A stretch of 64,000 bases of DNA from Thiomicrorhabdus sp. Kp2. GTDB taxonomy: Bacteria; Pseudomonadota; Gammaproteobacteria; Thiomicrospirales; Thiomicrospiraceae. A model generated the notes under the pieces. It was not told where the DNA came from and did not search any database. It worked only from the letters and a program-made list of their open reading frames with translations. The number at the start of each line of letters is the position of its first letter. The first letter of the stretch is position 1. This document shows positions 3,244 to 55,296 of the stretch, in pieces. A program made the position numbers and the translations under genes. Location of the stretch: positions 310,001-374,000 of the forward strand of contig NZ_ARWI01000001.1 in the NCBI RefSeq assembly GCF_000478585.1, read 5' to 3'.

Positions 3244-3281
3244 CTTTTTTATTTTATGTTTAATTTACAGGGATTATAAAC

Positions 3282-3310: not shown

Positions 3311-3328
3311 AATGAGAAACTCTTGAGA

Positions 3329-6412: not shown

Positions 6413-6547
6413 TGACTGACGACCAGGAAAAAAAGTCAAATTATATAAAATCAATTTTCGAGTTAGTTCGGTTTTAAATAAGATCAGGTCAAGGCGTGAG
6501 TAAGGAGCCTACATACAGTAGGTGACGAACGAACAACACAGAGATGA
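6413..6547. repeat. 135-bp direct repeat, copy 2, closed into a 98-bp hairpin element
   Basis: Second copy of the repeat at 6196-6330. Unlike copy 1 it is completed by a right arm: 6467-6486 and 6545-6564 are inverted complements over 20 bases with one mismatch (TTCGGTTTTAAATAAGATCA). The whole could fold as a long stem with the inner CCTAC/GTAGG hairpin, resembling a small mobile or structured intergenic element. Confidence 0.85.
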
Positions 6548-6578
6548 TCTTATTTAAAGCCGAAATAACCGATAAATT

Positions 6579-7070: not shown

Positions 7071-7105
7071 GGATTATTCTCCTACTACTCTGAAGTATGA
7101 CTATT

Positions 7106-7966: not shown

Positions 7967-8880
7967 TAACCCGCTTCACTCTCTGGTAAATTAAAGACAC
8001 GCTTGGGCTTTAATAACTGCTTTTCAGTTTGCCATTCACCCACGGCAATACAGACGTTATTTTCGTAAAAACGCACCAAATCGGTATCTGGTTTTGGCAT
8101 TTCCAACTTACCACCGTGTCGAATCAAGTCTGCTTGTTCAGAAGTTAAATCGATACGTTGTAAATGTTTGATTGCAATGTCTAATGGTTGAACACAGGCA
8201 TCAAGTTGTTGCTCAATCTCTTCAAGGGTTAACATATCATCACCCGACAAACTACCCGTTTGTGTACGGTGCAAGGCGATTAAATGCCCCACTGTTCCTA
8301 ATGCCTTGGCGATATCCTCACCCAGAGTTCTAACGTAAGTGCCCTTAGAGCAGTGCACATCAAACACAATTTGGTTATCGGTAAAGGAGACCAAAAACAA
8401 ACTGATGATTTTAATTGGTCGAGCAGGACGCTCTATCTCAATACCTTGACGTGCGTAGAAATAAAGCGGTTTACCCTGGTGTTTTAAAGCGGAATACATT
8501 GGCGGGATCTGTTCAATATCGCCCACAAATTTGGCAAGAACAGCTTCAATTAAATCGGTAGTTAGCTCTGGCACAGGCAAGGTTTGAATAATTTCACCTT
8601 CGGTATCACCCGTATCAGACTGTTCACCCAGTTTTAACGTCGCAGTGTAGCGTTTATCCGATTCTAAAAGTAACCCCGAAACTTTGGTTGCTTCACCTAA
8701 ACAGATTGGCAAAAGCCCTGTGGCAAACGGATCTAAAGCCCCGGTATGCCCACCTTTTTTAGCATTAAAGGCACGAATCACTTTTTGTAAAATACCATTG
8801 GATGAATCACCCACAGGTTTGTTCAACAATACAATGCCATTTACGACACGCTTGGGAGGTCTTTTATACTGCTGAGTCAT
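7966..8880 (-). CDS. truB: tRNA pseudouridine(55) synthase
   Basis: 304 residues. Makes pseudouridine 55 in the T-loop of tRNAs. The N-terminus has the KPVGDSSNGILQKV segment, and the catalytic aspartate is in GGHTGALDPFATGLLPICLG (residues about 39-58). The later CSKGTYVRTLGEDIA block is also typical of TruB, and a PUA-like C-terminal domain follows. Its ATG comes directly after the rbfA stop codon with no gap, and its own stop overlaps the next gene by one base. Confidence 0.97.
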   Translation of the reverse strand: MTQQYKRPPKRVVNGIVLLNKPVGDSSNGILQKVIRAFNAKKGGHTGALDPFATGLLPICLGEATKVSGLLLESDKRYTATLKLGEQSDTGDTEGEIIQTLPVPELTTDLIEAVLAKFVGDIEQIPPMYSALKHQGKPLYFYARQGIEIERPARPIKIISLFLVSFTDNQIVFDVHCSKGTYVRTLGEDIAKALGTVGHLIALHRTQTGSLSGDDMLTLEEIEQQLDACVQPLDIAIKHLQRIDLTSEQADLIRHGGKLEMPKPDTDLVRFYENNVCIAVGEWQTEKQLLKPKRVFNLPESEAG

Positions 8881-9243
8881 TTACGAATTGAGTGCCTTAT
8901 TAATCAACTCTTCCATGTGCTGTGCATGCTCTGGAATATTGTCATAATAAAAACGGATATGCGGCACAATTCTTAAACGTAGACGTTTACCAATCTCTGA
9001 ACGAAAAAAACCTTGGGCTTTTTCCAAGGCCGCTAAGGTATCCGCCACTTCTGGATCATTTTCATTAAAGCCCATTAAAGCAAAATGAACTTTAGCGACA
9101 CTTAAATCTTTACTTATTTTACAATCAGTAATACTAATATTCTGAAAGCGCGGGTCTTTTACCTCTTGCACAATCAACTGTGCAATGGTTCTTCTAATTT
9201 CTTGAGCGACTCGTGTTGGTCTGCTCACAGTTTGATTACTCAT
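8881..9243 (-). CDS. rbfA: Ribosome-binding factor A
   Basis: 120 residues, normal length. Assembly factor needed for 16S 5'-end maturation and cold adaptation. Family blocks RPTRVAQEIRRTIAQLIVQEVKDPR near the N-terminus and IGKRLRLRIVPHIRFYYD (residues 82-99, KH-like fold) are clear. It lies between infB and truB as in most gammaproteobacteria, but 169 bases separate it from infB and that gap holds a terminator-like hairpin. Confidence 0.97.
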   Translation of the reverse strand: MSNQTVSRPTRVAQEIRRTIAQLIVQEVKDPRFQNISITDCKISKDLSVAKVHFALMGFNENDPEVADTLAALEKAQGFFRSEIGKRLRLRIVPHIRFYYDNIPEHAQHMEELINKALNS

Positions 9244-9264
9244 AATCTCTTTACTCTTAAAATC

Positions 9265-9307
9265 AAAAAAGCCCCAATGGCAATCGAATTGATTGTTTCA
9301 TTGAGGC
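9265..9307 (-). terminator. Terminator-like hairpin between infB and rbfA
   Basis: On the transcript GCCTCAATG pairs with CATTGGGGC, enclosing an inner CAATC/GATTG stem, then six T (9265-9270). Placed inside the operon 22 bases before rbfA, it may act as a partial terminator that lowers rbfA-truB relative to infB. Confidence 0.7.
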
Positions 9308-9345
9308 AATTTGAATGACCAAATATGGGACTCAAAACCCAACTT

Positions 9346-9357
9346 ACCAGGCCTGGT
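9346..9357. repeat. ACCAGGCCTGGT palindrome, copy 4
   Basis: Exact core, extended symmetrically to CTTACCAGGCCTGGTAAG (9343-9360), in the infB-rbfA gap. Confidence 0.9.
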
Positions 9358-9412
9358 AAGTTGTAATTTGGTTAAACTGAAACCATAGTTGATAATTATA
9401 CAAGCCTAACGT

Positions 9413-11896
9413 TTAGTCTAAAGTACGTTTCACTTCTACACGCTGGTAACACTCAATTTGGTCACCGGCTTTAACGTCATTGTAGTCTTTAACACCGATA
9501 CCACATTCAATACCTTTTTGTACTTCAGGTACATCATCTTTAAATCGACGAAGTGACTCAAGAACACCTTCATAGATAACCACGTTATCACGAAGAACAC
9601 GAATTGGGTTGTTACGTTTAACAGAACCTTCTGTAACCATACAACCAGCGATAAGACCAATTTTAGGTGCTTTAAAGACTTCACGAACATCGGCAATACC
9701 GACGATATCTTCTCGGAATTCTGGAGCCATTTTACCTTCAATAGCTCGCTTCACTTCATCAACGATTTCATAGATAACACTGTAGTATTTAAGACCAATC
9801 CCTTCGTTATCAATGATACGTTTAGCAGAAGCATCTGCACGAACATTGAAACCAAAAATCAATGCATCAGAAGCCATCGCTAAGTTAGCGTCTGTTTCAG
9901 AGATACCACCTACACCAGTTGAAACAATAACGACTTTAATTTCATCCGTTGAAAGTTTCGTTAAGGCATCAGAAATAGCCTGAATTGAACCTTGTACGTC
10001 CGCTTTAAGAATGATGTTTACGTTTTGAACGTCACCTTCCGCCATCTTATTAAACATATTGTCTAACTTAGATTTTTGTTGACGAGCAATCTTCAGTTCT
10101 TTGAACTTACCTTGACGGAACGTAGCCGCTTCACGTGCTTTACGTTCACTTTCAACGGTAATCATCTCATCACCCGCAACAGGAACACTTGAAAGACCTA
10201 AAATCTCAACAGGAATAGAAGGTCCTGCTTCCGTAATAGACTGACCTGAGTCACTGATTAAGGCACGAACACGTCCATATTCCATACCACAAAGTGCAAT
10301 ATCACCTTTCTTAAGTGTACCAGACTGAACAAGCACGGTCGCAACAGGACCACGACCTTTATCAAGGCGAGATTCAATAACAACACCTTTAGCATGACCT
10401 TCAGTAGGCGCTTCTAGCTCTAGCATTTCAGACTGTAAAGAGATGGCATCTAAAAGTTCATCAATCCCCATACCTGTTTTGGCGGAAACAGGCACAAACT
10501 GTGTGTCACCACCCCAAGACTCAGGAATCACTTCTTCCGCAGCCAACTCTTGCATAACGCGATCCATATTGGCCGCTTCTTTATCCATCTTGTTTACTGC
10601 AACAACAATCCCAACACCAGATGCTTTTGCGTGCTGAATGGCTTCTTTAGTCTGAGGCATTACACCATCATCAGCAGCCACTACGATAACAACAACATCC
10701 GTTACTTCCGCACCACGTGCTCGCATCGCTGTAAAGGCCGCGTGACCAGGAGTATCGATAAAGGTAACACCACCCATATCCGTATCTACGTGATAAGCAC
10801 CAATGTGCTGAGTGATACCACCCGCTTCACCATGTGCTACTTTTGCTTTACGGATGTAATCAAGTAGTGAAGTTTTACCGTGGTCAACGTGACCCATGAT
10901 GGTTACAACAGGCGAACGATGAACCGTTTCACCATGGTACTCTTGGTTAACAACTTCATCTTCAATTGTCACTTCATTGAAAGCAACAGGTTTATGCCCC
11001 ATCTCTTCAACAATTAACATCGCTGTTTCTTGGTCAAGGATTTGGTTAATGGTCGCCATAGTACCGAGTTCCATCATCATAAATTTGATGACTTCACCTG
11101 TTTTAACAGACATTTGCTCTGCAAGAGCTGAAAGTGTAATACTTTCAGGCACTTTTACTTCACGAATAACAGGCTCTGTTGGTTTTTGGAAACCATGTTC
11201 ATTATCCGCTTGAGCAACGTTACGCTTATCGGCATGACCTTTACGACCTTTACCGCGGCGAGCGTCAAAAGCACTATTAGCTCGTGTCGTTGTTTTCTTA
11301 CCCTTACCTTTAGGCCCATCAACACCATCATTAGCCTTACGGCTCTCATGATGTTTTTGATCCTTGGCTTTTTTAGCGGCTTTAGAATGATCTTCCTTTG
11401 GAGGTACTGGAGCAATCTTAGCGATAGTCTCTTCATCCAAAGTCTCTTTTTTACCAGATACTTTTTTGACAGGTTCTTCTTCAACAACTGTTTCAACGAC
11501 TGGGGTTTCTTCAACCTTTGTCTCAACAACTGGAGTCTCTTCAACAATCACTTCCTCAACGATAGGTTCTTCTACCACTGATTCTTCAACCGTTTCTGGT
11601 TTTTTAACATAAGTACGTTTTTTACGAACTTCAACATTCACAGTACGCTTTCCGCTTCCTGAACCTGCAGACAGATTCAATGTTTGCTTACGACGTAATG
11701 TCACTTTTTTAGGTGCATCTTCTGATGTTTCACCATGCAAACTTTTTAAATAAGTCAGTAAAGTACGCTTTTCTTCTTCTGATAAGGTGTCAGACTCTTT
11801 TTTACCTTTAACACCAGACTCGTTTAATTGTGAAATCAGTTTTTCTACAGAAAGGTTAAGTGTCTCTGAAAATTGTTTTATTGATACTTCGGCCAT
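9413..11896 (-). CDS. infB: Translation initiation factor IF-2
   Basis: 827 residues. GTPase that brings fMet-tRNA to the 30S subunit. An N-terminal IF2-N module (residues 1-50) precedes a low-complexity linker rich in Glu, Val, Lys and basic patches (about 85-240), a second IF2-N domain, then the G domain: G1 GHVDHGKTS (residues about 335-343), G2 around [12 protein letters not shown]3 DTPGHAAF, G4 NKMD, G5 SAK. Domains II, III and the fMet-tRNA-binding C2 domain complete it. Only 18 bases after nusA. The repetitive linker produces long open frames on other strands and frames that are not genes. Confidence 0.98.
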
Positions 11897-11914
11897 CGAA
11901 ACTCTTCCTTTTTA

Positions 11915-13402
11915 TTATTCAAACCATGGTGCGCGCGCTTTAAGAATTAATTCTCCTGCAGCAGCTTCATCCATTTCTACATACTCTAGTAGCTCATCTG
12001 TACCAAGCTCTGCTAAATCTTCTTGTGTAATCACACCGTTACTTGCTAATTGCTTAGCCATATCTTCTGTCATACCTTCAAGCGCTAACAGATCGTCGGC
12101 TGGCTCTGCCATAGCTGTTTTTTCTTCAGCTACAATCGCTTGAGTTAATAACGCATCTTTTGCACGTTGTTTTAACTCGCCAACCAACTCTTCATCAAAA
12201 CCATCAATTTCGAGCATTTCAGCAGCAGGAACGTAGGCTACTTCTTCAACAGTTGTAAAACCTTCAGCAACCAATACTTCTGCAAAATCTTCGTCAATAT
12301 CAAGTGCTGTAACAAACACATCAACTTGGTCTTTAGATTCGGTCTCATGCTTCTCAGCCATTGCTGTCTGAGTCATAACGTTCAGTTCCCAACCAGTTAG
12401 CTCACTAGCTAAACGAATATTTTGCCCGTTCTTACCAATGGCTTGAGAAAGTTGCTCATCTTCAACCGCTAAATCCATAGTGTGTCTATCTTCATCAACC
12501 ATGATTGAGGTAACTTCTGCTGGAGCCATTGCGTTAATAACAAACTGAGCATCATTTGGATCCCATAGAATGATATCGATTCTTTCACCCGCTAGCTCAT
12601 TAGTAACCGCTTGAACACGACCACCACGCATACCAACACATGCACCAATTGGATCTAAACGCGGATCATTTGCACGCACTGCAATCTTAGCGCGGAAACC
12701 AACATCACGAGCCGCACTCATAATATCAATCAAATCATCACTGATTTCAGGCACTTCAATTTTGAATAGCTCAATCAACATCTCTTTACAAGCACGAGAC
12801 ATAAATAATTGAGGACCACGCGGGCGGAAAGAAACTTCTTGCAGATAACCACGAACACGATCACCAATACGGAAAGTCTCACGACCAATTAATTGGTTGC
12901 GCATAATCACCGCATCAACGTTATCACCCATATCAAGAATGACATCACCACGATCAATACGTTTTACCTGGCCTGTTAAGATTTCTCCAACACGCTTTTC
13001 ATAAACTTCAACCACTTTCTTACGTTCAGCTTCACGTACTTTTTGGATAATTACTTGTTTGGCAGTTTGTGCTCCGATACGACCAAAATCAATAGACTCA
13101 ATTGGCTCTTCAATGTATTCACCAATTTCAATATTAGGATCTTCATCAACCGCATCCATTTCACGAATGTACCATCCAACGTTATCTTCAATGGCTGTTG
13201 CATCGTCAATTACTTCCCAACGCTGAAAAGTTTCGTAATCACCTGTATGGCGATCAATGCTCACGCGAACATCAATTTCATCGTCATGGCTTCTGCGTGT
13301 TGCCGTCGCTAATGCCGTTTCAATAGCGTCAAAGATGATCTCTTTATCAACACCTTTCTCGTTGGCCATAATCTCAACAACAGCTAATACTTCTTTACTC
13401 AT
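11915..13402 (-). CDS. nusA: Transcription termination/antitermination protein NusA
   Basis: 495 residues, the E. coli length class with two C-terminal acidic repeats. Order: N-terminal RNA-polymerase-binding domain (1-130), S1 (about 135-200, [21 protein letters not shown]), two KH domains ([17 protein letters not shown] and [19 protein letters not shown]), then AR1 and AR2 helix-hairpin-helix repeats from about residue 365. It modulates pausing, intrinsic termination and rRNA antitermination. Located between rimP (52 bases upstream) and infB (18 bases downstream). Confidence 0.98.
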
Positions 13403-13454
13403 TTCTGTCTCGCTCTAATTCTGTGTATTACTATCTAAAACTTCAAAATTTGGT

Positions 13455-13910
13455 TTAAAACTTAGGTACCACATTGGCTTTTTCAATAAATTCAAATGGC
13501 ACTTCAAATAATTCGCCATCAATTTCAAGCTCGATGCCTGATTCCGTAACCTTGGTCATAGGGCCTTTAAAGCGTTTTCTACCTAAAACAGACACTCCGC
13601 TACGGACTTGAACCTCCTGCCCTTCATAACGTTTGTATTGTTCAGGGGTAAATAACAGACGATCCATTCCAGGTGAAGAGACTTCTAAGCGAAATTCGCT
13701 ACTGATCACATCTTCAACATCTAAAATGGCACTAATCTGTTTACACACGGCATAGGTTTCGTCAGAATTGACTGTACCGTCTGTTTTTTCTATAAATATA
13801 CGTAATAGCGTATGTCTCCCAGCAGGCATGTATTCCATACCCCACCAGTCAAACCCCATGGATTCAACGGTTGGTTTTAACGCATTTTCTATCTTTTCTT
13901 CAATCGTCAC
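13455..13910 (-). CDS. rimP: Ribosome maturation factor RimP
   Basis: 151 residues. Needed for early 30S maturation. The conserved FEW-like pattern of the N-terminal domain (SMGFDWWGMEYMPAGRHTLLRIFIEK) and VSSPGMDRLLFTPEQYKRYEGQEV at the domain junction identify it. First gene of the rimP-nusA-infB unit, preceded by a terminator hairpin 38 bases upstream in the same direction. Confidence 0.96.
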   Translation of the reverse strand: MTIEEKIENALKPTVESMGFDWWGMEYMPAGRHTLLRIFIEKTDGTVNSDETYAVCKQISAILDVEDVISSEFRLEVSSPGMDRLLFTPEQYKRYEGQEVQVRSGVSVLGRKRFKGPMTKVTESGIELEIDGELFEVPFEFIEKANVVPKF

Positions 13911-13947
13911 TTATTACTCATTCCAAGTATTCTGAAGTTTAAATAAC

Positions 13948-14045
13948 AAAAAACCCCGTAAAAACGGGGTTTTTTAAAATTCGAACCGCCGTTACATCTC
14001 AGTAAACGACCCTCGATAAAACTTTTTAAAAAATCTGCGGGTAAT
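13948..14045 (-). promoter_or_regulatory. Candidate rimP leader / attenuator
   Basis: A strong intrinsic terminator (AACCCCGT-AAAA-ACGGGGTT with T-runs on both sides, 13948-13975) stands directly upstream of rimP, after about 70 bases of conserved-looking RNA containing GGCGGTTCGAAT. Rfam describes a gammaproteobacterial rimP leader ending in a Rho-independent terminator at exactly this place. The terminator is visible in the sequence; identity with that family is by position and architecture. Confidence 0.6.
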
Positions 14046-14135
14046 TATATTCATTTTTGTTTAATTGTCAAATACTTATGCATGAATTTTTAGTTAACTT
14101 TGCACGAAAAACTGAATACTTCTTTCTATTAAAAG

Positions 14136-14786
14136 TTAACTATCTCTTTGTAATTTAACAAAAATTAAAGCGGTCATTAAGGCATCACTAAAAGCATCAT
14201 GTTGACCGATATTGGGAATATCGAGTTTTTTAAGTATGGTTTCAAAGCGTAAATCAATATGCCCAAGAGGTTTAGCATAGCCTTGTGACCTAACCACTTT
14301 TTGATAATAACGTTCTGAAACTTCTATTTTAGGATTAGGCAATGTAATACCCAACCAAGGTTTAATGACTTGATTGACCATCGCCACATCAAACTCTAAA
14401 AAGTACCCAACTAAAGTCCCTCCTGCAATAAAATGCAGAAACTGAGTAATCGCCTCTTTTTCATCAAGAAGTTTATTACCCCCTTCACTTACATCTTGAT
14501 TTCGTATTTGGTGCACAACAATACTTTCTGCTGTTATCTTTTTATCCTGACGAATCAATAAATTTAAGCTTTGACTGGTTAGCACCTGATTACCTTTAAT
14601 CTTAATGGCGCTCAATGAGATAATTTTATCTTGCTTTGGGTTTAACCCAGTTGTTTCGCAATCAAAACAAATATATTCATCTTCAATAGCTGGTTCAAAT
14701 AAAAACAAATAGGCCTGGTCTTTGAGTTTTTTTCGCAAACGGTTTGTTTTATAGCCTTGATAAACATTATTTAACCAGGCCTGCAT
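14136..14786 (-). CDS. DnaQ/PolC-like DEDDh 3'-5' exonuclease
   Basis: 216 residues. Exo I motif FDCETTGLNPKQDKI (residues about 40-54), Exo II region around YFLEFDVAMVNQ, and Exo III with His-Asp spacing, IGQHDAFSDALMTA (about 195-208), so the DEDDh metal ligands are present. A basic N-terminus (about 30 residues) precedes the domain. It starts within the last base of the DUF294 gene (one-base overlap), so it is translationally coupled. This DUF294-exonuclease pair accompanies acetate symporter genes in many gammaproteobacteria; why is not known to me. The first codons contain a truncated palindrome copy (MQAWL). Confidence 0.85.
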   Translation of the reverse strand: MQAWLNNVYQGYKTNRLRKKLKDQAYLFLFEPAIEDEYICFDCETTGLNPKQDKIISLSAIKIKGNQVLTSQSLNLLIRQDKKITAESIVVHQIRNQDVSEGGNKLLDEKEAITQFLHFIAGGTLVGYFLEFDVAMVNQVIKPWLGITLPNPKIEVSERYYQKVVRSQGYAKPLGHIDLRFETILKKLDIPNIGQHDAFSDALMTALIFVKLQRDS

Positions 14787-16663
14787 TACATAACCTCTCT
14801 TAATTTAAAATGGTATGTAAGCCGTTTTTTAAACTCATCCACCACCTGGAAAGACTGCTTGAGTAAATCTTGCTGAAGATGCGATAAGTCATGCACTTTA
14901 ATGTAGTTATCTGGATTCTCTACTAACTTAGACTCTTTTTGCTGCAACATAGATTCTAAACGTAAGGTATTTAAGTAATTTAGGGTTTCGCCAAGCTCTA
15001 TTCCAAAACTTTCCTCAAACACCCCTTTATCCATTAAGGCTTTAATACGCCAATGGGTATTGGTTTCAGTCATTCCTTGTTCCAGGGCATAACAGCGAAC
15101 ACCATGCACAATTGGGAAGATACCGCCTTTTTTCAAGTCAATCTTTTTAACCCCTTTATCTTGCTCTGTGAGTAAATTTCCAAAAAAACTCACTGGTGTA
15201 GCAAATTGAATCGCAGGTAGGGCAAAGTGCCTTAAAAAAACAGGATTCTCTCGTATTTTTGCAGCGAGGCGTGCTTTTACCGATAACATCATTTTTTCAT
15301 CGCCACTGACCGATTCAGCATCATAAAAAATCGCAATCGACATAAAATTTTCTAAATTTGGCTGGTTAAACCAATCGCTGAGTTGGCTTTTAAAGCCAGA
15401 CTCTGATTGTCGCCAAATAGGGTTTGATAGCATGACATCTCCTGGACAACGAGGAAAACCAATTTCAATCATCGCATCAGTAAATCTAACAGAAAACTCA
15501 GCAAGCTCTCGCTCCTCTGTTTCATTTAACTCATTGCTATAAATGAGCGCATTGTCTTGATCTGTTCTCAACACCTGTTCGGCACGTCCTTCACTCCCCA
15601 TAACCAATACATTCACGCTGTCTTTTAAATTCTCTGGCAATAAAAACATGACTAGTTTTTGTATCATCTTACGGTGCAGTTCATTCACTAATTTGGCTAT
15701 ATAGTGGGTTTTAATCCCTTTACGATTCAAACTACCTATCAGTGAATCTACTTGATTACCGAGTGTATTTAAATCTTGAACGTTTTGTGCTTGTTCTACC
15801 TTTAACAAAACCAATCCTGACTGATTGGCAAACAGACTCATTAAATCTTTTAAATGCAAAAAACCCACAAATCCCTCATCAGCTCTCACTACTAAGCGAT
15901 CTATTTGAAAGCGGGTCATTTTTAGTAAAGCATTAAACAAAAAATCAAATTGATGAACTGTCTGTAAAGGTGAATTTGCAAGCTCAGTTAATACACCAGG
16001 CCTGGTAAGTTCAGTTGAATCCTGCTTGGCAATAAACTTCATCACATCAGTAGAGGTAACAATACCTAAAGGAGACTGGCTCTTCTGATTTAAAACAATA
16101 CAGGCATCAGACTTGTTTTCCACCATTTTAGCAACGGCTTGTTGCAATGTTTGTTGCTCTTCAACTTCAACTAAAGCTTGTATGGGAGCAGAACATACGC
16201 TATCCATCATAATTTCCGTTGACGACGTGGCTTGAACCGTTTGATGAAGATGGTTTAATTTATCAACAATTGAGGCATTGAAGTAATTTTGAATGGCTGG
16301 ATTATTATCAAATTCTTCTAAAAATAGCTCTCCAGGTAATCGATACAAAATCGCTTCTTCTAAAACGCTAAACTTAGTTTTTCCAACCTCTTTATTTTTT
16401 TGTAACAGCTCCCGCTCACCAAAGAAGCCTCTGGCACTGTAGTGCCCCAATAATGTCTCATCTAAATGCTCTGTCACTAACCCTTTAATCACAAAGTACA
16501 GGTAGTTCTGAGTGTTTGACTGAGAAGCCGAAACAGGAATAAAACTATCAACAGGAAAGTAGACTACATCCATACTTAAAGCCATGTGCTGAAGCGCTTT
16601 ATCTTGAAGTAAATCAAAAGGAGGGATTTTTGCTAAAAATTCAGCTTGTTGCTCTAAAGCCAT
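14786..16663 (-). CDS. cNMP-binding / CBS-pair / DUF294 nucleotidyltransferase-like protein
   Basis: About 625 residues. Order: Crp-type cNMP domain (about 15-140), a CBS pair (about 160-290; TLQQAVAKMVENKSDACIV and RFQIDRLVVRADEGFVGFLHLKDL), DUF294 nucleotidyltransferase-like domain (GSEGRAEQVLRTDQDNALIY, resembling the GlnD-type GSxxRxE...DxD), then DUF294_C. Such proteins are thought to be adenylate-sensing regulators of the neighbouring acetate uptake and activation genes, which is inference. The ATG at 16663 is chosen over a GTG at 16672 because GAGAG is well placed before it. It is separated from the symporter gene by a terminator. Confidence 0.85.
   Translation of the reverse strand: MALEQQAEFLAKIPPFDLLQDKALQHMALSMDVVYFPVDSFIPVSASQSNTQNYLYFVIKGLVTEHLDETLLGHYSARGFFGERELLQKNKEVGKTKFSVLEEAILYRLPGELFLEEFDNNPAIQNYFNASIVDKLNHLHQTVQATSSTEIMMDSVCSAPIQALVEVEEQQTLQQAVAKMVENKSDACIVLNQKSQSPLGIVTSTDVMKFIAKQDSTELTRPGVLTELANSPLQTVHQFDFLFNALLKMTRFQIDRLVVRADEGFVGFLHLKDLMSLFANQSGLVLLKVEQAQNVQDLNTLGNQVDSLIGSLNRKGIKTHYIAKLVNELHRKMIQKLVMFLLPENLKDSVNVLVMGSEGRAEQVLRTDQDNALIYSNELNETEERELAEFSVRFTDAMIEIGFPRCPGDVMLSNPIWRQSESGFKSQLSDWFNQPNLENFMSIAIFYDAESVSGDEKMMLSVKARLAAKIRENPVFLRHFALPAIQFATPVSFFGNLLTEQDKGVKKIDLKKGGIFPIVHGVRCYALEQGMTETNTHWRIKALMDKGVFEESFGIELGETLNYLNTLRLESMLQQKESKLVENPDNYIKVHDLSHLQQDLLKQSFQVVDEFKKRLTYHFKLREVM
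15997..16008. repeat. ACCAGGCCTGGT palindrome, copy 5
   Basis: Exact 12-mer in the CBS region of the DUF294 gene, read as T-R-P-G; followed on the plus strand by AAGTT. Confidence 0.9.
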
Positions 16664-47463: not shown

Positions 47464-48231
47464 CTAACCCGCCTGCATCTTTAATATTTCAGCGACCTCA
47501 ATAGGTTCTGGATAACGTGCAAAAGCGGTCTCTTTTTCGGCAATCGCCACCATAGACATTCTGTCGGCCAATTCATTACCTTCAACGCCAACATGCCCAT
47601 TAACATGTAGCACTTGAATTTTACCTTTTAAGGTTTGATGTAATTTAAACATCGCTTGAATGAGTTCAAGATTTTTAATTTCTCCGCCTGACTTTTTCCA
47701 GCCCTTTTTCTCCCAACCAATCGCCCACTGAGTAACACATTGAATAGAGTATTTAGAATCACAAAAAATGACCACAGAGCGACCCTTTTCGGTTTCTGTT
47801 TTGGCCATCATTAACGCTTGGTGTAAGGCATTTAATTCGGCGGTATTGTTTGTGCCCATGGGGTTATATAAACCATACCAAAGTTCTGCAATTTGATTAT
47901 TACGGTAAACCGCCATACCTGAACCTGCCTGGCCTGGATTAGGATCGCAACCGCCATCGGTAAAAATCTTAACCTCTAAATCCATCGTATCAATTTCAGC
48001 GGCCGTGTAGGTTTTAATCCCATTAACAGCGGGTTTCTTTTTTACTGAAGATTGAGTTTTAGAGGTGGGTTGAGTGGTTTTACCACCAAAGGCTTGTTCG
48101 GCTTCCGCTTGGGTTGGAAACGATTTATATTTGGCACCCGCAAACTTATCTACTTGAGCTTTACAACTGTTCCAATCGGTATAAATTCCAGGTTTTCTAC
48201 CTGCCCAAACTACATAATATTTTTTTGCCAT
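47464..48231 (-). CDS. rnhA: Ribonuclease H1 with N-terminal hybrid-binding domain
   Basis: 255 residues. Residues 1-50 (KKYYVVWAGRKPGIYTDWNSCKAQV...FPTQAEAEQAF) form the RNA/DNA hybrid-binding (Cauli_VI) domain found in eukaryotic RNase H1 and some bacteria. A linker of about 35 residues leads to the RNase H domain: IFTDGGCDPNPG, TAELNALHQAL, FCDSKYSIQCV and NELAD supply the DEDD residues; HVNGHVGVEGNE is the usual loop. Degrades RNA in RNA-DNA hybrids. Lies alone, with a repeat-filled gap upstream. Confidence 0.93.
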   Translation of the reverse strand: MAKKYYVVWAGRKPGIYTDWNSCKAQVDKFAGAKYKSFPTQAEAEQAFGGKTTQPTSKTQSSVKKKPAVNGIKTYTAAEIDTMDLEVKIFTDGGCDPNPGQAGSGMAVYRNNQIAELWYGLYNPMGTNNTAELNALHQALMMAKTETEKGRSVVIFCDSKYSIQCVTQWAIGWEKKGWKKSGGEIKNLELIQAMFKLHQTLKGKIQVLHVNGHVGVEGNELADRMSMVAIAEKETAFARYPEPIEVAEILKMQAG

Positions 48232-48429: not shown

Positions 48430-49284
48430 TTAATCTTCTAAAGCGGCTTTTAAACGTTCTTGGCGAGCTTGCTCTTCTTCTAAAGCGGCCTTAATTTCAA
48501 GCATTACCGAATCCACATCAGCGTCTTTTTCTTGTTCATCAAACACGCCTGTTAATTGGGTTTCTTGGCTTAACTCTCCCGCTTCAAACAAGGCCCAAAT
48601 CTCTTTTGCGTATTGGGTATTTTTAAGCTCAGGCGCAAACTGTGCGTAATAGTTGGTCATATTATCAATATCACGCGTCAGCATACGTTTAGCATTGTTA
48701 TTGGCTGCCGCATTGACCGCTTGTGGTAAATCAATAATCACAGGGCCATATTCATCCACTAGCACATTAAATTCAGATAAATCGCCGTGAATCAGACCTA
48801 CCGATAACATCAGCATCACATAGTGCATTACTTCGGCATGGTCTTCTATGGCTTGTTCTGCGGTCATAGAAACATCATTTAAACGCGGTGCGACATCTCC
48901 GTCTTCATCGGTAATCAGTTCCATTAACAAAACACCGTCAAAACAGCCATAAGGCTCAGGTACTCTTACGCCAACTTGTGCCAACTTATAAAGTGCATCT
49001 ACCTCTGCGTTTTGCCAAATATCCTCTTGTTGTTGGCGACCAAACTTAGAACCTTTTTGCATGGCTCGGGCACGTCGGCTATTTTTAACCTTACGCCCCT
49101 CTTGGTATTCAACTGCTTTTTTAAAGCTACGTTTACTGGCTTCTTTATACACTTTGGCACAGCGAATCTCATCACCACAACGTACCATATATACATCAGC
49201 TTCTTTACCGCTCATTAAACGGCGAATAACTTCGTCAACAAGTCCATCTTCAACTAAAGGGAGTATTCTTTCAGGGGTTTTCAT
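48430..49284 (-). CDS. RIO1-family protein kinase
   Basis: 284 residues. ATP-binding start GKEADVYMVRCGDEIRCAKVYK (lysine in AKVYK), catalytic loop LIHGDLSEFNVLV and metal site IIDLPQAV are all present, so an active atypical serine kinase of the RIO1 group is expected. In archaea and eukaryotes RIO kinases act in 40S maturation; the bacterial role is little known. A glutamate-rich C-terminal tail (about 250-284) follows. Monocistronic. Confidence 0.92.
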   Translation of the reverse strand: MKTPERILPLVEDGLVDEVIRRLMSGKEADVYMVRCGDEIRCAKVYKEASKRSFKKAVEYQEGRKVKNSRRARAMQKGSKFGRQQQEDIWQNAEVDALYKLAQVGVRVPEPYGCFDGVLLMELITDEDGDVAPRLNDVSMTAEQAIEDHAEVMHYVMLMLSVGLIHGDLSEFNVLVDEYGPVIIDLPQAVNAAANNNAKRMLTRDIDNMTNYYAQFAPELKNTQYAKEIWALFEAGELSQETQLTGVFDEQEKDADVDSVMLEIKAALEEEQARQERLKAALED

Positions 49285-49461: not shown

Positions 49462-51396
49462 TTAACGATTTTCTTTAGCTTTATGCTTGGCTTTATTGAT
49501 TGTTTTGGCATGGTACATCTCTTTATCGGCGTACTGAATTAAGCCCTCTATATCGTCACTATCTTGAGGGTAAATACTGGAGCCAATACTAATCCTAACT
49601 TGTAGACTCACCTCATTTAAATGAATAAGCGGTATAAATTCATTCATAATTTTTTTAACCAACGCATCTACTTCAATATCTGTTTCAATACCACGTAGTA
49701 AAATAACAAATTCATCGCCTGCATAACGTCCAACAATATCACTTTCTCGAATACTATTTCTAAGGCGCTGGGCAACGACTTTTAATACTTCATCACCAAC
49801 TAGGTGACCATAGAGATCATTCACTTGCTTATAGTCATCAATATCTATAAACAGTAGAGCAAAGTGACTTTTATCACGTTTACTTTCAACTAATTGCTGT
49901 TTCATTAGTTGCGACAACATATTACTGTTGGCTATCCCTGTTAGCCAGTCAAACTGCGCAGCTTCATAGAGTTTAGCCTCAAGCGCCTTACGTTTAGTAA
50001 TGTCTCGAGCCATACAAATGATATCGGTTTCATTAGACAGTGCATTTTGATAAGGCGCATTTACCCACTCACACATAATCTCACTGCCATCTTTGCGTAC
50101 ATTCCTATTTTCTGAAACCACCGATGCCCTACTTTCTTTTGTATTGGCCAAAACCTCAGCAACCTTTGTTTGATCTTTTTCTGGCACCAAAAGCTCTACC
50201 AAGCTTTTGCCTATAACGTCTTTCTCTTTCCAAAGAAACGTTTTCTCCGCTTGTCGGTTCCACTTTTGCACATTGCCTGCTTTATCCATAACAATCAAAC
50301 TTAGTGGCGACTCCATAAAGATGGTGTCCAACTGCTCTTTTCGAGCATGTGTTGTACGATAAAGTCGGGTTAAACCGATAATTAAAACGAGTAAAACTAT
50401 AAAAACTAAAGCAATATATTTTAATTGTTCTTGTAACTGAGCATATTCAAAATCATAGTTGGGTTGATACAACAAACCTTGTAAGTTGATTTTTTCGGGC
50501 AGGATACCAAGGCTGTGATAAGTATCCGCAATATGACGCCAACGTCCTTCTGTCATATAACCTGGTTCAATTAACTTTGGCATCATCAACTCGTCCATTG
50601 ACTTGGCTTCAAATCTTAGGTGCTCTAAACTCTTTTGTTGCGAATACTTTTGGTAAATTAGCTGCACTATCTCTTCTTGATGCGACATCGCATACTTCCA
50701 ACCTTTGATGGTCGCTTGGTAGAAGTTGCGAACCAACTGTGGGTCTTTTTCAACTAAACTTTGCAATGTAAAGAAATTATCACCATAAAAATCGATACCA
50801 CTCATTCGTGGAGAGAATAGCTGAAATCTAATTCCTTGTTCAGCTAATATATAAGGCTCATCAGTACTGTAAACAGACATAACATCTGCTTTACTGTTAA
50901 TCAAATCGTTAACATTATGCGAGTGGGTTTCTAGGGTAAGTGCAGATTGATGAATACCTTCAGACTGCATATAAGCAAATAACTCGGCGGAGTTAGGTTC
51001 TATCATTAACCGTTTGCCAATAAATTTGTGAACATGATTAATATTTGATTCAGACAGGGTCATTAGATTTAATGGCGAATGCTGCATAATCACGCCTAAA
51101 ATGGTAATTGGATCACCTTTATGAAAGGCTAAAACCAAATCACTGGTTCCTACGCCAAAATCCGCCTGCTTATTGAGTACAACACTGATTGGATCAATAC
51201 CAGGCTTTGCCTCAAGCAAAGAAACTTCTAAACCAACCTCTTTATAAAAACCTTTTTCAATGGCGGCGTAATAACCTGCAAACTGAAATTGGTGGTGCCA
51301 TTTAAGTTGCAGCGTAATCGGTTTTAAAGTGCTATCTTCTGCCTGTAAAGCGCACACAAATAAAAGTGAAATGAGCCCTGAAATCCGTTTAATCAT
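49462..51396 (-). CDS. Exported NMT1/THI5-like sensor with PAS and GGDEF domains
   Basis: 644 residues from the ATG at 51396 (MIKRISGLISLLFVCALQAEDS, a signal peptide), which overlaps the deaminase stop (ATGATTAA); an ATG ten codons earlier also exists. Periplasmic NMT1/THI5-like binding domain about 30-320 (LQLKWHHQFQFAGYYAAIEKGFY, the pyrimidine-precursor-binding family), a membrane helix (about 332-352), PAS (about 365-475) and GGDEF (about 490-645) with the site AGDEF and DIDDYKQVND. It should turn periplasmic ligand binding into c-di-GMP synthesis. Ligand unknown, but a hydroxymethylpyrimidine-like or other small ligand is suggested by the family and by the linked pyrimidine-type deaminase. 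Confidence 0.88.
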   Translation of the reverse strand: MIKRISGLISLLFVCALQAEDSTLKPITLQLKWHHQFQFAGYYAAIEKGFYKEVGLEVSLLEAKPGIDPISVVLNKQADFGVGTSDLVLAFHKGDPITILGVIMQHSPLNLMTLSESNINHVHKFIGKRLMIEPNSAELFAYMQSEGIHQSALTLETHSHNVNDLINSKADVMSVYSTDEPYILAEQGIRFQLFSPRMSGIDFYGDNFFTLQSLVEKDPQLVRNFYQATIKGWKYAMSHQEEIVQLIYQKYSQQKSLEHLRFEAKSMDELMMPKLIEPGYMTEGRWRHIADTYHSLGILPEKINLQGLLYQPNYDFEYAQLQEQLKYIALVFIVLLVLIIGLTRLYRTTHARKEQLDTIFMESPLSLIVMDKAGNVQKWNRQAEKTFLWKEKDVIGKSLVELLVPEKDQTKVAEVLANTKESRASVVSENRNVRKDGSEIMCEWVNAPYQNALSNETDIICMARDITKRKALEAKLYEAAQFDWLTGIANSNMLSQLMKQQLVESKRDKSHFALLFIDIDDYKQVNDLYGHLVGDEVLKVVAQRLRNSIRESDIVGRYAGDEFVILLRGIETDIEVDALVKKIMNEFIPLIHLNEVSLQVRISIGSSIYPQDSDDIEGLIQYADKEMYHAKTINKAKHKAKENR

Positions 51397-51847
51397 GCGT
51401 GCAGTCACACTCCCCAATATCTTCATTCCATATTTCAGGATTTGCTTCTATAAACTGTTTCATCAAATTTATACAGGCCTGGTCATTTAACTCAACTACC
51501 TTAACGCCTGCATCACGCAGCCATTCTAAATGGCCTGAAAAATTATGCGACTCACCCACTACTACTGTGCCTATATTAAACTGGCGAATTAATCCCGAAC
51601 AGTACCAACAAGGGGCAAGCGTAGTAACCAATATTTTGTCTTGATAAGTTTTTTGACGCCCCGCTTTTCTAAAAGCATCGGTTTCGCCATGAATAGACGG
51701 GTCATTATCTTGAACACGTCGATTGCGACCTAAGCTTATAAGATTACCCCTTGAATCAAACATCGCAGCACCAACAGGTACACCGCCTTCTTTAAAGCCC
51801 TGCTCGGCCTGTTCAAGCGCAGGTTGTAAAAGTGCTAAATAATCCAC
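51389..51847 (-). CDS. Cytosine-deaminase-like nucleobase deaminase
   Basis: 152 residues of the CDA fold. Zinc site HGETDAF (His plus catalytic Glu, about 58-64) and APCWYCSG (P-C-x-x-C, about 83-90). The end MKQFIEANPEIWNEDIGE closely resembles the C-terminus of fungal cytosine deaminase (Fcy1), as does TTLAPC. It may deaminate cytosine or a related pyrimidine; guanine or other bases cannot be excluded. Upstream gene of a two-gene unit with the NMT1-GGDEF sensor (8-base overlap). A palindrome variant is in the codons DQACI. Confidence 0.8.
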   Translation of the reverse strand: MDYLALLQPALEQAEQGFKEGGVPVGAAMFDSRGNLISLGRNRRVQDNDPSIHGETDAFRKAGRQKTYQDKILVTTLAPCWYCSGLIRQFNIGTVVVGESHNFSGHLEWLRDAGVKVVELNDQACINLMKQFIEANPEIWNEDIGECDCTHD

Positions 51848-51974: not shown

Positions 51975-53192
51975 ATGGAAAACACAATCAAAATGCTTAG
52001 CAACAAGATGACGTCATTAAAGCAATATTGCACGCATATCGTTTTTGCAGACCGAGAAATGACACCCAATCTTGCACCCATACTCGATGAAAGACTCACC
52101 GTTAAACGTGTATTAATTATCTATTCAGAAAACCTATTGGAAAATGCACAACGACTCAAAAAAATTTACAATGCACACAGAATTAAAGCCGATATTTACC
52201 TAATAGAACCTGCTTTTGAAATCCCCTCTATCGTCAATGACCTGCAATTATTGGTTCAAGAAATACCTTATGAAACACTCTCAATTAATCTAAGTTGCGC
52301 AAATAAACTTTATACATTAGGTGCTTTTAAGGCTTTTGAAAACACACCCGTTGGCCTTTACTACCTATTACCCAATGACCAGTTTAAATGGATTCAACCC
52401 AGCGGGTTACCAGAATTTAATATTGCAGAAAACATGCAACTTGAAGAGTTTTTACATGCACATGGCATTGAGTACTCTTACCCAGTTAAATTAACACCCA
52501 GCCAAGCAAGTTTTGCCAATAGTCTGGTTAATGCGATACAAAAAATCATATTACAACAACATGCACTTAAAACTTACCAACACTTCTCTACCCGTTTTGC
52601 ACGTGGTAAGTCGGTAAAGTTAATCAAAAATAATGAACACTATTATCTAAATGACATCCACAACACCCACTCGCGTTTAAAAGCCGATCTTCTACTTGGT
52701 TTTTTAAGAAAATTACACAACCAAAATGTGCTACATCTCAAGTTTGAAAACCATGAAATCTACCCACTTCCTGAACAAGACAGTTGGAAACGAACCTTTT
52801 TTGAAGGGGGCTGGTTAGAGTATTACGCCTACCGAACACTTTTAGAGCTTAAAACAGAAGTTGAAAAAATTAAAGAAGTGGCGTTTGGCGTTAAGCTGCA
52901 ACGTCAAAATGCCTACGATGAAGCCGATGTGCTGTTTTTAGCAAACAACCAACTGTTTGTGGTGGAGTGCAAAACAGGCAATAACGTCAACATTAACTTA
53001 CATCTACAACGGTTAGATAGCCTAAGAAATCGCCTGGGTGGCACCACAGCACACTCCTTATTAATTACCACTGAGGTCATTGGCGCAAACCTACCCAAAG
53101 CCAACTTATTAAATGTGGGGGTGATTGATGGTCATAAACTTTCACACCTTAAACACCATTTGCACGAATGGATTTTAAGTGAGATTACTTAA
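51975..53192 (+). CDS. DUF1887 CARF-nuclease (Card1/Can2-like), orphan
   Basis: 405 residues. The N-terminal half has a Rossmann-like CARF layout, with NLSCANKLYTLGAFKAF (about 107-123) at the place of the usual N-x-TGGTK loop, so the nucleotide-binding loop is altered. The C-terminal PD-(D/E)xK nuclease part is well kept: GGWLEYYAYRTL (about 278-289), YDEADVLFLANNQLFVVECKTG (about 315-336) and a C-terminal strand. The family cleaves DNA/RNA when bound to cyclic oligoadenylate from type III CRISPR (Card1/Can2); VC1769 is another stand-alone member. No CRISPR array or cas gene is in the window. Monocistronic; weak Shine-Dalgarno. Confidence 0.8.
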   Translation: MENTIKMLSNKMTSLKQYCTHIVFADREMTPNLAPILDERLTVKRVLIIYSENLLENAQRLKKIYNAHRIKADIYLIEPAFEIPSIVNDLQLLVQEIPYETLSINLSCANKLYTLGAFKAFENTPVGLYYLLPNDQFKWIQPSGLPEFNIAENMQLEEFLHAHGIEYSYPVKLTPSQASFANSLVNAIQKIILQQHALKTYQHFSTRFARGKSVKLIKNNEHYYLNDIHNTHSRLKADLLLGFLRKLHNQNVLHLKFENHEIYPLPEQDSWKRTFFEGGWLEYYAYRTLLELKTEVEKIKEVAFGVKLQRQNAYDEADVLFLANNQLFVVECKTGNNVNINLHLQRLDSLRNRLGGTTAHSLLITTEVIGANLPKANLLNVGVIDGHKLSHLKHHLHEWILSEIT

Positions 53193-53676: not shown

Positions 53677-54504
53677 CTATCTCAAGCGTCTTTCTAATGC
53701 TGAAGTTTGTTGAAGAGGTTGTTGTTTATAAAACAAGGCAAGTTGCTGATACACCGCTGGGTAAACTTTGTTTAAAACATAAGGCGCTTCAAAAAAATAC
53801 TCTGTTGCCACTGCAAAAAATTCAGCTGGATTGGTGGCCGCATAAGGGTTTATATCAGGTCGCGCTCCATTTTCAATCTGCTGATTAAGATGCCTAAAAG
53901 CCTGTTCAAAAGCATTAAACCAGGTCTGCTCACTCATCTCTTTATGCAATGGTGGGTGACCGTTTGTATAACCATCAAGCATATCCAATTTATGCGCCAT
54001 CTCATGCATTAAAACTTGGTTAGCCTCTGTTCGCAATGGGTGTGGGGCATTATCTTGCCAATCAATAATAATACCGCCCTGGTACTGAGTTTCACCCGAC
54101 TCAACGCCTGCCCAACTCACTAAAAAGCCATCGGTACTCAGCAAGTTTTCTCGCCCATTACGAAACGGTGTTGGATAAACCGTAATTTGATTCCAATTAC
54201 GTAACCATGAAAGTGAGTCAATTCGGTTATTAGATTCCAACCCCAAAACCATCATCGCCACTTGAGTGGCAATCATAATACGAATCTCATCTGTCAAAGT
54301 CATACCCTGAACAGGAATAATCGCTTTTAATCGAAGAACTTCACCCGCTAACAAACGTAACTGCCATTTTTCTTGAGCAGAATAGCGTTGCATCATTGGC
54401 ATTTTAGCAATCGTCTGATGCCATAACCTCAACGGAATTTTGCTCTGTTTTAAACGATGCAATAAAACCGCATTTTTGATTTTTTTAACCAAGTTAAAAT
54501 TCAT
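53677..54504 (-). CDS. mtfA: MtfA-like zinc peptidase
   Basis: 275 residues. Zinc site HEMAHKLDMLDG (HExxH plus downstream Asp) at about 168-179 and a third ligand Glu in NPAEFFAVATEYFF, the gluzincin pattern of MtfA. In E. coli MtfA binds the glucose-PTS repressor Mlc and has aminopeptidase activity; whether Mlc exists here is unknown. The NERD gene lies 12 bases upstream in the same direction, probably one operon. Confidence 0.9.
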   Translation of the reverse strand: MNFNLVKKIKNAVLLHRLKQSKIPLRLWHQTIAKMPMMQRYSAQEKWQLRLLAGEVLRLKAIIPVQGMTLTDEIRIMIATQVAMMVLGLESNNRIDSLSWLRNWNQITVYPTPFRNGRENLLSTDGFLVSWAGVESGETQYQGGIIIDWQDNAPHPLRTEANQVLMHEMAHKLDMLDGYTNGHPPLHKEMSEQTWFNAFEQAFRHLNQQIENGARPDINPYAATNPAEFFAVATEYFFEAPYVLNKVYPAVYQQLALFYKQQPLQQTSALERRLR

Positions 54505-54516: not shown

Positions 54517-55296
54517 CTAGAACTGAAGAGTTCCTCTACAAGAGGGATAACGACTACAACCTAAAAATTCATTGCCAGCATTCACGCCCTTTTTAGCTTT
54601 GCGTAAAACCATTTTACTTCCACATTTAGGGCAGATAGGCAAAGCCTGTTTTTTCACAACAATATTATTAACATGTCGAACATGTTCCCTATTCGTTTTT
54701 GTAGATCGCACTAATCGGCCTGACTCAATTTTTTCAATAATCAAATCAAACTCATTCCAGCTTAACACCTGTTCTGTTTTACTTTTAATAAAACGAATAT
54801 AACCTAAACCATGAGTTACATTTTTTGGCATATCGGTTTTAAACTCGCTGGTACCAATAAACACCACAATAGAATGAACTTGATTATCCGTTAGATTAAG
54901 TAAGCTTTGAAGGGTTTTAACGTGCTTATGATTTTGATAAAGCGGGTTTTGAAAGCTATATCGGGATTTTTTATTCAGTTGTTGTATCCACTTTTTTTGA
55001 AATTCACCACCAAAAATCCATCCCTGCATATTTTTGGTTTCCACCACAAACACGCCATAGGGTGAAACAATAATGTGATCAATTTGCGTTGTTCCACCGT
55101 TTTCAGTAGGTAAGGTCACATCCTTTATTAAGTGATATTGATGTTTATTCAGAGAAAGTTTGCTAATCACATTAACCCAAAATTCACCCGCCTTACCCTT
55201 AAACCAAGGAGACTGAACCAGGCCAATAATAATCGCCGCAGGAATAACATATAAAAACACACTAAATAAAGGCGAAACGATTGACGATAAATCCAT
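54517..55296 (-). CDS. NERD nuclease-related protein with zinc ribbon
   Basis: 259 residues. N-terminal membrane helix (about 8-28), then NERD domain (about 35-150; GEFWVNVISKLSLNKHQYHLI, TTQIDHIIVSPYGVFVVETKNMQGW with the D and E-x-K of the PD-(D/E)xK fold), a basic linker, and a topoisomerase-type zinc ribbon (CPKCGSKMVLRKAKKG...FLGCSRYPSCRG) at the end. Likely membrane-tethered and DNA/RNA binding. Paired with mtfA. Substrate unknown. Confidence 0.87.
   Translation of the reverse strand: MDLSSIVSPLFSVFLYVIPAAIIIGLVQSPWFKGKAGEFWVNVISKLSLNKHQYHLIKDVTLPTENGGTTQIDHIIVSPYGVFVVETKNMQGWIFGGEFQKKWIQQLNKKSRYSFQNPLYQNHKHVKTLQSLLNLTDNQVHSIVVFIGTSEFKTDMPKNVTHGLGYIRFIKSKTEQVLSWNEFDLIIEKIESGRLVRSTKTNREHVRHVNNIVVKKQALPICPKCGSKMVLRKAKKGVNAGNEFLGCSRYPSCRGTLQF

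What the first reader, a model, noticed from the sequence alone, without database searches (positions are those of the whole stretch)
51975..53192. Orphan DUF1887 (Card1/Can2-like) nuclease with altered CARF loop
A well-kept PD-(D/E)xK domain is joined to a CARF-like domain whose ligand loop reads LSCANK instead of TGGTK. No CRISPR array or cas gene is present within 50 kb on one side and 10 kb on the other. It may respond to a different nucleotide signal (CBASS-like or stress-made) or act in trans to a distant type III system.
Basis: partly seen in the sequence, partly recalled or inferred. Interest (0 to 1): 0.65.

Follow-up and report, generated by a model that had tools for sequence, protein, structure and literature searches.

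The report
CRISPR-type nuclease without its CRISPR
A bacterium carries an intact nuclease of the kind normally switched on by type III CRISPR systems, but no such system was found in its genome and the switch pocket is altered, so the enzyme has probably been kept for another, still unknown trigger.

Summary
The gene is real: a 405-aa DUF1887 (Can2/Card1) protein, CARF domain plus PD-(D/E)xK nuclease, catalytic residues present, loop NLSCANK instead of NxTGGTK. The complete genome shows no type III CRISPR (no RAMP, mCpol or SMODS match). It has a type I-C locus with a 23-repeat array about 1.1 Mb away. Nine genes from eight genomes of the bacterial family form one clade (100/100) with S-C-A-[NS]-[KQ]; 8 of 9 carry Asp where Can2 has the cA4-contacting Ser19. 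None of the eight genomes has a RAMP match. The gene is chromosomal, looks vertically inherited (read as one gain, two losses) and is under purifying selection (dN/dS 0.07 and 0.09 in two usable pairs). VC1899 of Vibrio, a published orphan not activated by cA4, has the same Ser-to-Asp and Ser-Cys changes, probably on a separate branch (AU p 0.035). Best reading: a resident CARF-gated nuclease re-tuned to a signal other than type III cOA; ligand unknown. 'In trans to a distant type III system' is not supported in this genome. New variant of a known kind.

The parts
51993..53192 (+).
   Evidence: ORF, Pfam, PADLOC CARF4 CARF_PDDEXK 1.7e-63, homologue starts align at M7
52029..52451 (+). CARF domain, about residues 19-159
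   Evidence: CARF_Card1 residues 31-158; CARF-only structures match residues of about 13-147
52050..52058 (+). D26-R27-E28 at the end of CARF strand 1; D26 stands where Can2 has the cA4 contact Ser19 (VC1899 Asp9)
   Evidence: alignments; residue roles from PMC7969007 (passages)
52287..52307 (+). Altered ligand loop NLSCANK (residues 105-111)
52776..53177 (+). PD-(D/E)xK nuclease domain, about residues 268-401; E316, D318, E331 and K333 present
   Evidence: Card1_endonuc 7.7e-20; identical in 11 of 11
47464..48231 (-). RNase H with Cauli_VI N-terminal domain: within about 4 kb of the orphan in 7 of 9 loci (context, not claimed as a working part)
48430..49284 (-). RIO-family kinase, context gene used for the neighbour tree
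49462..51426 (-). NMT1-PAS-GGDEF protein, possible diguanylate cyclase; context only, weak lead
51389..51847 (-). Cytidine-deaminase-fold protein, divergent neighbour (context)
53677..54504 (-). M90 metallopeptidase, context gene found near the orphan in 5 of 9 loci

Best explanation
This is a chromosomal, apparently vertically inherited CARF-gated nuclease descended from type III CRISPR effectors of the Can2/Card1 kind. It has been uncoupled from type III signalling and kept for another trigger. As in Can2, it probably works as a homodimer in which the two CARF domains hold a small ligand and bring two PD-(D/E)xK domains together to nick DNA and cut RNA. The pocket no longer looks made for cA4: the strand-1 Ser is Asp, a Glu follows two residues on, and the Thr-Gly-Gly turn is Ser-Cys-Ala. 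Three of the four residues shared by Can1 and Can2 (Thr42, Lys99, Tyr118) are kept as Ser/Thr51, Lys111 and Tyr130. SHOWN here: domains, catalytic residues present, altered pocket, no RAMP, mCpol or SMODS match, single clade, congruent neighbour tree, purifying selection in the pairs that could be measured. INFERRED: dimer, nuclease activity, loss of cA4 response, existence of another ligand, a stress or anti-phage outcome, and the order of events.
For: Domains and fold. No type III: PF03787 has 0 candidates in G000 and no match in any of the 8 genomes that hold the nine clade genes; 10 of the 62 family genomes do match, so the search works in this family. mCpol: 4 candidates scored, none matches. 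SMODS: 1 scored, none matches. One clade: the nine sequences 100/100, with the two SCGTK relatives 100/99, and those eleven 99/99 with the loop columns left out. Pocket: D26 in 8 of 9 (Asn in one), E28, S107, C108, A109 and Y130 9 of 9, K111 8 of 9 (Gln in one). Selection: of 7 pairs tried, dN/dS is 0.071 (dS 1.04) and 0.092 (dS 0.60); a third gives 0.052 at dS 3.2, near saturation; four were saturated. Measurable neighbour pairs: RNase H, SELD and SELU 0.03-0.08, RIO 0.02-0.04, M90 0.07-0.14. Inheritance: on a RIO+RNase H tree of 15 genomes presence needs three changes, read as one gain and two losses. Loop against type III over 42 CARF-bearing genes: in RAMP-positive genomes lie 1 of 11 SC loops, 18 of 19 TGG loops and 5 of 12 others; SC against the rest Fisher p 0.00025 (the genes are related, so p is only indicative). 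VC1899, with D and SC at the same places, is not activated by cA4 (PMC7969007, passages).
Against: No ligand or activity was measured. Three of the four cA4 contacts are kept, which VC1899 does not do, so binding of some cyclic oligoadenylate is not excluded. RAMPs are rare in the genus anyway (4 of 32), so their absence from the 7 same-genus SC genomes is not significant in itself (0 of 7 against 4 of 25, p 0.55). Two of the eight genomes are imperfect: G034 is 88% complete, and G041 has 8% contamination and two copies. One SC-loop gene (L024) sits in a genome that has type III. One clade member (L022) has lost Asp26 and Lys111, which hints at weaker constraint there. No genetic partner is conserved next to all nine genes. 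Two genomes of the clade lack the gene, so it is not essential.
Confidence: 0.5

Rival explanations
1. It is still an ordinary cOA-activated effector. It waits for type III systems that come and go by horizontal transfer, or for a cOA maker of a family not searched here.
For: Ser/Thr51, Lys111 and Tyr130 are kept. RAMPs occur in 10 of 62 family genomes, and in the genus on both main branches of the neighbour tree. One SC-loop relative (L024, G014) coexists with a type III locus. An earlier paper judged most cA4 contacts likely conserved in VC1899 (PMC6981274, passages), before it was assayed.
Against: In the genomes sampled, TGG loops go with RAMPs (18 of 19) and SC loops do not (1 of 11). Acid residues enter the pocket at D26 and E28, and a like change in VC1899 goes with no cA4 response (PMC7969007). 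G048 has RAMPs and lacks the gene.
Confidence: 0.17
2. [quoted passage not shown]
For: Chromosomal place near genes such as RNase H, RIO kinase and an AIR-synthase-like (selD-like) gene. No match on plasmids or phages and none confirmed on viral contigs. Purifying selection in the range of neighbours.
Against: Pocket residues remain conserved (S107, C108 and E28 in 11 of 11 down to 34% identity), which a bare scaffold would not obviously need. Absence from 2 of 9 genomes of the clade.
Confidence: 0.2
3. It is a degenerate remnant cast adrift from CRISPR, as the authors of PMC7969007 suggested for VC1899.
For: No type III found in the genome. One member has lost two pocket residues (L022). A broken orphan exists elsewhere in the class (G375, split match with an in-frame TAG).
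Against: All nine genes are full length with the catalytic residues present, and dN/dS is 0.07 and 0.09 in the two usable pairs.
Confidence: 0.06
4. It is gated by a c-di-GMP-related signal: GGDEF and EAL genes lie close to it more often than expected.
For: 7 of 53 ORFs of 100 aa or more within three genes of the nine loci carry GGDEF or EAL, including a GGDEF gene overlapping the start by 29 nt in G022 and EAL and GGDEF-EAL genes on both sides in G061. Background about 59 such genes in G000 (53 GGDEF matches plus 6 EAL-only).
Against: 4 of 9 loci (G026, G028, G034, G041b) have none that close. The pattern was noticed after the fact; merged for orthology it is about 5 of an assumed 45 genes, p about 0.005 with an assumed gene number. 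The pocket gained acids, odd for a polyanion ligand.
Confidence: 0.07

Closest known systems
VC1899 of Vibrio cholerae (PDB 1xmx), orphan founder of DUF1887
   Same: Same two domains, closest solved structure, no associated type III system (PMC7969007), Asp at the Ser19 place, Ser-Cys at the start of the loop, catalytic residues kept.
   Different: Groups with 11 class proteins, 9 of them with TGG loops, not with this clade (88/83; AU p 0.035 against one clade). It loses Thr42 and Tyr118, which this clade keeps; loop SCGLR rather than SCANK.
CARF genes not linked to CRISPR, e.g. Daci_4198 of the VC1899 family (PMC4012209)
   Same: Unlinked CARF genes in each CARF family were already reported in 2014 (passages).
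   Different: That example sits in a secretion and Ter gene cluster; this clade sits among housekeeping-type genes. Its loop was not compared.
Can2 of Sulfobacillus thermosulfidooxidans (7bdv) and relatives
   Same: CARF plus PD-(D/E)xK, catalytic E and D, pocket Thr, Lys and Tyr.
   Different: Can2 has Ser19 and TGGTK and is tied to type III (PMC7969007); here Asp26 and SCANK, and no type III found in the genome.
Card1 of Treponema (6wxw, 6xl1)
   Same: Same architecture and fold (Z 15.1 and 16.6).
   Different: TGGTK loop and type III effector; about 19% identity.
Cdn1 (8z4i, 9u49), DUF1887 protein activated by cA4 and cA6
   Same: Same family and fold, Z 22.4 for 9u49.
   Different: Encoded in a type III-B locus (PMC12825302, passages).
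Card1 proteins without the SC loop in the same bacterial family
   Same: Same domains; those of G014, G018, G038, G044 and G059 lie on the same contig as Cas10-type and RAMP matches.
   Different: Outside the clade; loops T-[GVIST]-G-[TS]-[KH] or SGGTK; 7 of 10 are in RAMP-positive genomes (8 of 12 with the distant L025 and L026).

Membership tests
DUF1887 / Can2-Card1 protein family | N-terminal CARF plus C-terminal Card1 nuclease domain | tested here: met
   PF23400 25.6 bits (cut-off 24.6) and PF09002 71.3 bits (cut-off 26.4); structure matches
DUF1887 / Can2-Card1 protein family | Catalytic residues of the PD-(D/E)xK site | tested here: met
   E316, D318, E331 and K333 in 11 of 11 rows
[quoted passage not shown]
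   No RAMP match in the complete genome; a type I-C locus instead
Can2/Card1 as type III CRISPR effector | cA4-binding residues Ser19, Thr42, Lys99, Tyr118 and TGGTK loop | tested here: not met
   3 of 4 kept (Ser51, Lys111, Tyr130); Ser19 is Asp26 and the loop is SCANK
Can2/Card1 as type III CRISPR effector | Nuclease switched on by cA4 or cA6 | not testable with these tools
   needs purified protein
VC1899-type orphan | No type III system, Asp at the Ser19 place, Ser-Cys loop | tested here: met
   VC1899 itself from PMC7969007 (passages)
VC1899-type orphan | Common descent with VC1899 apart from TGG-loop Can2 | tested here: inconclusive
   Tree separates them; AU p 0.035, with long branches and a group named after the tree was seen
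CBASS effector | CD-NTase of the SMODS family in the genome | tested here: not met
   PF18144: 1 candidate scored, no match in G000; other CD-NTase families not searched
mCpol-linked CARF system | mCpol minimal polymerase in the genome | tested here: not met
   PF18182: 4 candidates scored, no match in G000

The most novel reading that the evidence does not exclude
CARF nucleases freed from type III CRISPR were re-tuned at least twice, in Thiomicrorhabdus-type sulfur bacteria and in Vibrio, by the same two pocket changes (Ser to Asp, Thr-Gly to Ser-Cys). They now answer a common chromosomally made signal that is not a type III cyclic oligoadenylate, which would make them CARF nucleases outside the cOA signalling world.
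Probability: 0.25. Interest if true: 0.78.

Novelty: new variant of a known kind. Interest (0 to 1): 0.5.

Why it matters
CARF domains are known mostly as cyclic-oligoadenylate sensors of type III CRISPR. A clade kept intact in genomes without type III matches suggests that CARF nucleases can have a life of their own. It makes an open question, what the orphan VC1899 type senses, testable in environmental bacteria: the same two pocket positions changed in what looks like two lineages, so the ligand screen and the mutants are already defined. It also warns that a Card1 or Can2 hit is not by itself evidence of type III signalling: 18 of the 42 such genes read here lie in genomes without RAMP matches (the sample is heavy in the window's own family).

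Tried and rejected
Type III elsewhere in the genome: not found. Cas10 by palm domain: PF22335 matched 59 of 62 genomes because it also picks up GGDEF domains, so I used RAMPs instead. Of the nine G000 matches I opened five; all carry GGDEF-type motifs and lie on strong GGDEF matches. The other four were not opened.

SC loop common in relatives of the same class: not so in the sample. Of 369 class genomes, 26 matched profile A1; apart from G000 itself, none of the 19 loops that I could read was SC. Left out of that count: L074, L079, L080, L081, L083 and L085 (no CARF part, or a fragment). L086 to L089 are second pieces of genes already counted. The tree further leaves out L025, L026, L075 and L077 (distant or partial).

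Mobile element: protein searches of plasmids and phages gave no match at 1e-5. The viral-contig scan gave 43 pattern matches and no confirmed relative; it rests on two short patterns. The genome-contig scan found 3 loci, whose contig lengths equal those of G041, G022 and G034 contigs.

Remnants at the loss sites: tblastn of the protein against the neighbour stretches of G032 and G048 gave nothing at 1e-3.

Promoter and terminator scan at chance level; no tandem repeats. Pocket distances in the model were not measured. The 2020 CARF classification paper is not held; I did not read it. That this clade is not in print rests on searches for VC1899, CARF with DUF1887, CARF4, orphan CARF, DUF1887, CARF with Thiomicrorhabdus, and Can2 with 'not associated with', all in open-licence PMC papers only; of the papers listed I looked at passages or one section of six.

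Full report
WHAT IS THERE. The ORF at 51975-53192 (+) encodes 405 aa. Pfam finds the Card1 endonuclease domain at residues 272-400 (7.7e-20) and the Card1 CARF domain at 31-158 (1.3e-5, just over its cut-off). PADLOC puts it with CARF4 CARF_PDDEXK, 1.7e-63. The nearest solved structures by sequence are VC1899 (1xmx), Can2 (7bdv) and Card1 (6wxw). A predicted model from an alignment of 11 proteins (pLDDT 84.1, pTM 0.65) has 1xmx as best match by Foldseek and by VIA-align (Z 24.4, 356 residues, rmsd 8.7 A). The likely start is M7, 51993, where the relatives begin.

THE POCKET. Can2 residues Ser19, Thr42, Lys99 and Tyr118 are those conserved between Can1 and Can2 in cA4 binding; in VC1899 they are Asp9, Asp34, Arg96 and Val115 (PMC7969007, passages read). 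On the alignments the window protein has Asp26, Ser51 (Thr in the other eight), Lys111 and Tyr130. It thus keeps three of four and shares with VC1899 the Ser-to-Asp change. The loop TGGTK is SCANK; VC1899 has SCGLR. In the nine-gene clade D26 holds in 8 of 9, E28 in 9 of 9, S107-C108-A109 in 9 of 9, K111 in 8 of 9 and Y130 in 9 of 9; the exception at both D26 and K111 is L022. The loop still fits the general CARF signature [DN]X[ST]XXX[RK] (PMC4012209, section 6 read), but the alcohol residue typical of the end of strand 1 is gone.

NO TYPE III FOUND, BUT TYPE I-C. The genome is one contig of 2,725,706 bases, scored 100% complete. The RAMP family PF03787 finds no candidate in it, while 10 of the 62 family genomes match. 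mCpol (4 candidates scored) and SMODS (1 scored) give no match. The Cas10 palm model matched nine places in G000; of these I opened five: all have GGDEF-type motifs and lie on GGDEF matches of E 1e-42 or better. One Cas1 was found. PADLOC names five genes of that locus Cas3c, Cas5c, Cas8c, Cas7c and Cas1c; a Cas4-like ORF lies between (name recalled), and Cas2 was not looked for. The same stretch holds an array of 23 direct-repeat copies. This is a type I-C locus about 1.1 Mb from the gene. Type I-C is not known to make cyclic oligoadenylates (recalled).

A RESIDENT CLADE. Of the 62 family genomes 18 have a Card1 nuclease domain. Nine genes in eight genomes (G000, G022, G026, G028, G034, G041 twice, G049, G061) form one clade at 100/100. 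L023 (G054) and L024 (G014), with loop SCGTK, join it at 100/99, or 99/99 when the loop columns are left out. None of the eight genomes has a RAMP match; G034 is 88% complete, and G041 has 8% contamination, so one of its two copies may be foreign. Seven of the nine genes lie within about 4 kb of the same RNase H gene, and five of those also near the same RIO kinase and M90 peptidase genes; G061 and the second G041 copy sit elsewhere. On a RIO plus RNase H tree of 15 genomes (G021 left out, no RNase H in its stretch) presence of the gene needs three changes, of which starred branches force at least two; I read them as one gain and two losses (G032, G048) inside a branch of nine genomes at 100/100. 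tblastn saw no remnant in the two loss stretches at 1e-3. dN/dS is 0.071 and 0.092 in the two pairs with moderate synonymous change; a third gives 0.052 at dS 3.2, and four of the seven pairs tried were saturated. Neighbour genes lie between 0.02 and 0.14 in their measurable pairs. The labels SELD and SELU for two neighbours are recalled; Pfam gives AIR-synthase-like domains for the first and nothing at 1e-8 for the second. No relative was found on plasmids or phages or confirmed on viral contigs. A decaying relic would not look like this.

LOOP CLASS AND TYPE III. I read the loop in 42 CARF-bearing genes: 23 from the family and 19 from a class sample of 369 genomes. In RAMP-positive genomes lie 18 of 19 TGG loops, 5 of 12 other loops and 1 of 11 SC loops (RAMP status). 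SC against the rest gives Fisher p 0.00025, but related genes are not independent, and within the genus the absence of RAMPs from SC genomes is no surprise (0 of 7 against 4 of 25, p 0.55). The one SC gene in a RAMP-positive genome, L024, still has Ser at the Asp26 place and Gly in the loop; L023 has Ala and Gly. So the rows form a series from Can2-like to the full orphan pocket. That order is my inference.

PARALLEL WITH VC1899. In the tree VC1899 groups with eleven class proteins, nine of them with TGG loops (88/83). Forcing it together with the 11 SC proteins, with the loop columns removed, is weakly rejected (AU p 0.035). Caution: the group was named after the tree was seen, and VC1899 is on a long branch. 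If true, the same two positions changed twice in lineages without type III, which speaks for re-tuning rather than drift. PMC7969007 reports weak RNase activity of VC1899 that cA4 does not regulate and calls it possibly 'cast adrift'; only cA4 appears as activator in the passages that I read. An earlier paper had expected cA4 contacts to be largely conserved in VC1899 (PMC6981274, passages). That some CARF genes, also of the VC1899 family, are not linked to CRISPR was noted in 2014 (PMC4012209, passages).

CONTEXT LEADS. GGDEF or EAL genes make up 7 of 53 ORFs of 100 aa or more within three genes of the nine loci, against about 59 such genes in G000. In G022 a 7TM-GGDEF gene overlaps the start by 29 nt; in G061 EAL and MHYT-PAS-GGDEF-EAL genes flank the gene. 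Four of nine loci have none, and the pattern was found after the fact, so I give it little weight.

VERDICT. Observation confirmed. It is a new variant of a known kind: a stand-alone, maintained CARF-PD-(D/E)xK nuclease with a changed pocket. Its mechanism is inferred by homology: ligand-gated dimer, nicking of DNA and cutting of RNA. The ligand is unknown, and a cyclic oligoadenylate is not excluded.

Noticed in passing
L054 (own genome C1:1478000-1497000): array 6483-7994, cas genes 9100-16434: Type I-C CRISPR-Cas locus with 23 direct-repeat copies and a WYL-like regulator next to it (regulator name recalled); spacers were not searched.
   Followed up: partly
L046 (G054:C80) 1072-2232 (+) and 2237-3442 (-): Two Card1-type genes tail to tail, four bases apart, one with loop TSGTK and one with SCGTK, in a genome without RAMP matches; possibly like the state from which the orphan clade came.
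   Followed up: partly
L079, L080, L083, L085: Card1-type nuclease domains without a recognisable CARF part but with an N-terminal CxxC-type zinc-ribbon-like stretch (recognised by eye), in four class genomes.
   Followed up: no
L020 (G004:C119): CARF-nuclease behind a long N-terminal region that I did not annotate (open frame 879 aa).
   Followed up: no
54517-55296 (-): NERD nuclease-related protein with a topoisomerase-type zinc ribbon; relatives are present as two adjacent copies in G028 (L036 6317-6961 and 6986-7765).
   Followed up: no
49462-51847 (-): NMT1-PAS-GGDEF gene overlaps the end of the cytidine-deaminase-fold gene; the same pair is kept in G049 (L037).
   Followed up: partly
L061 (SGGNK), L066 (SGGTR), L075 (SGGSK): Other Can2-like genes in class genomes without RAMP matches also depart from TGG, by Thr to Ser at the first loop place.
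   Followed up: partly
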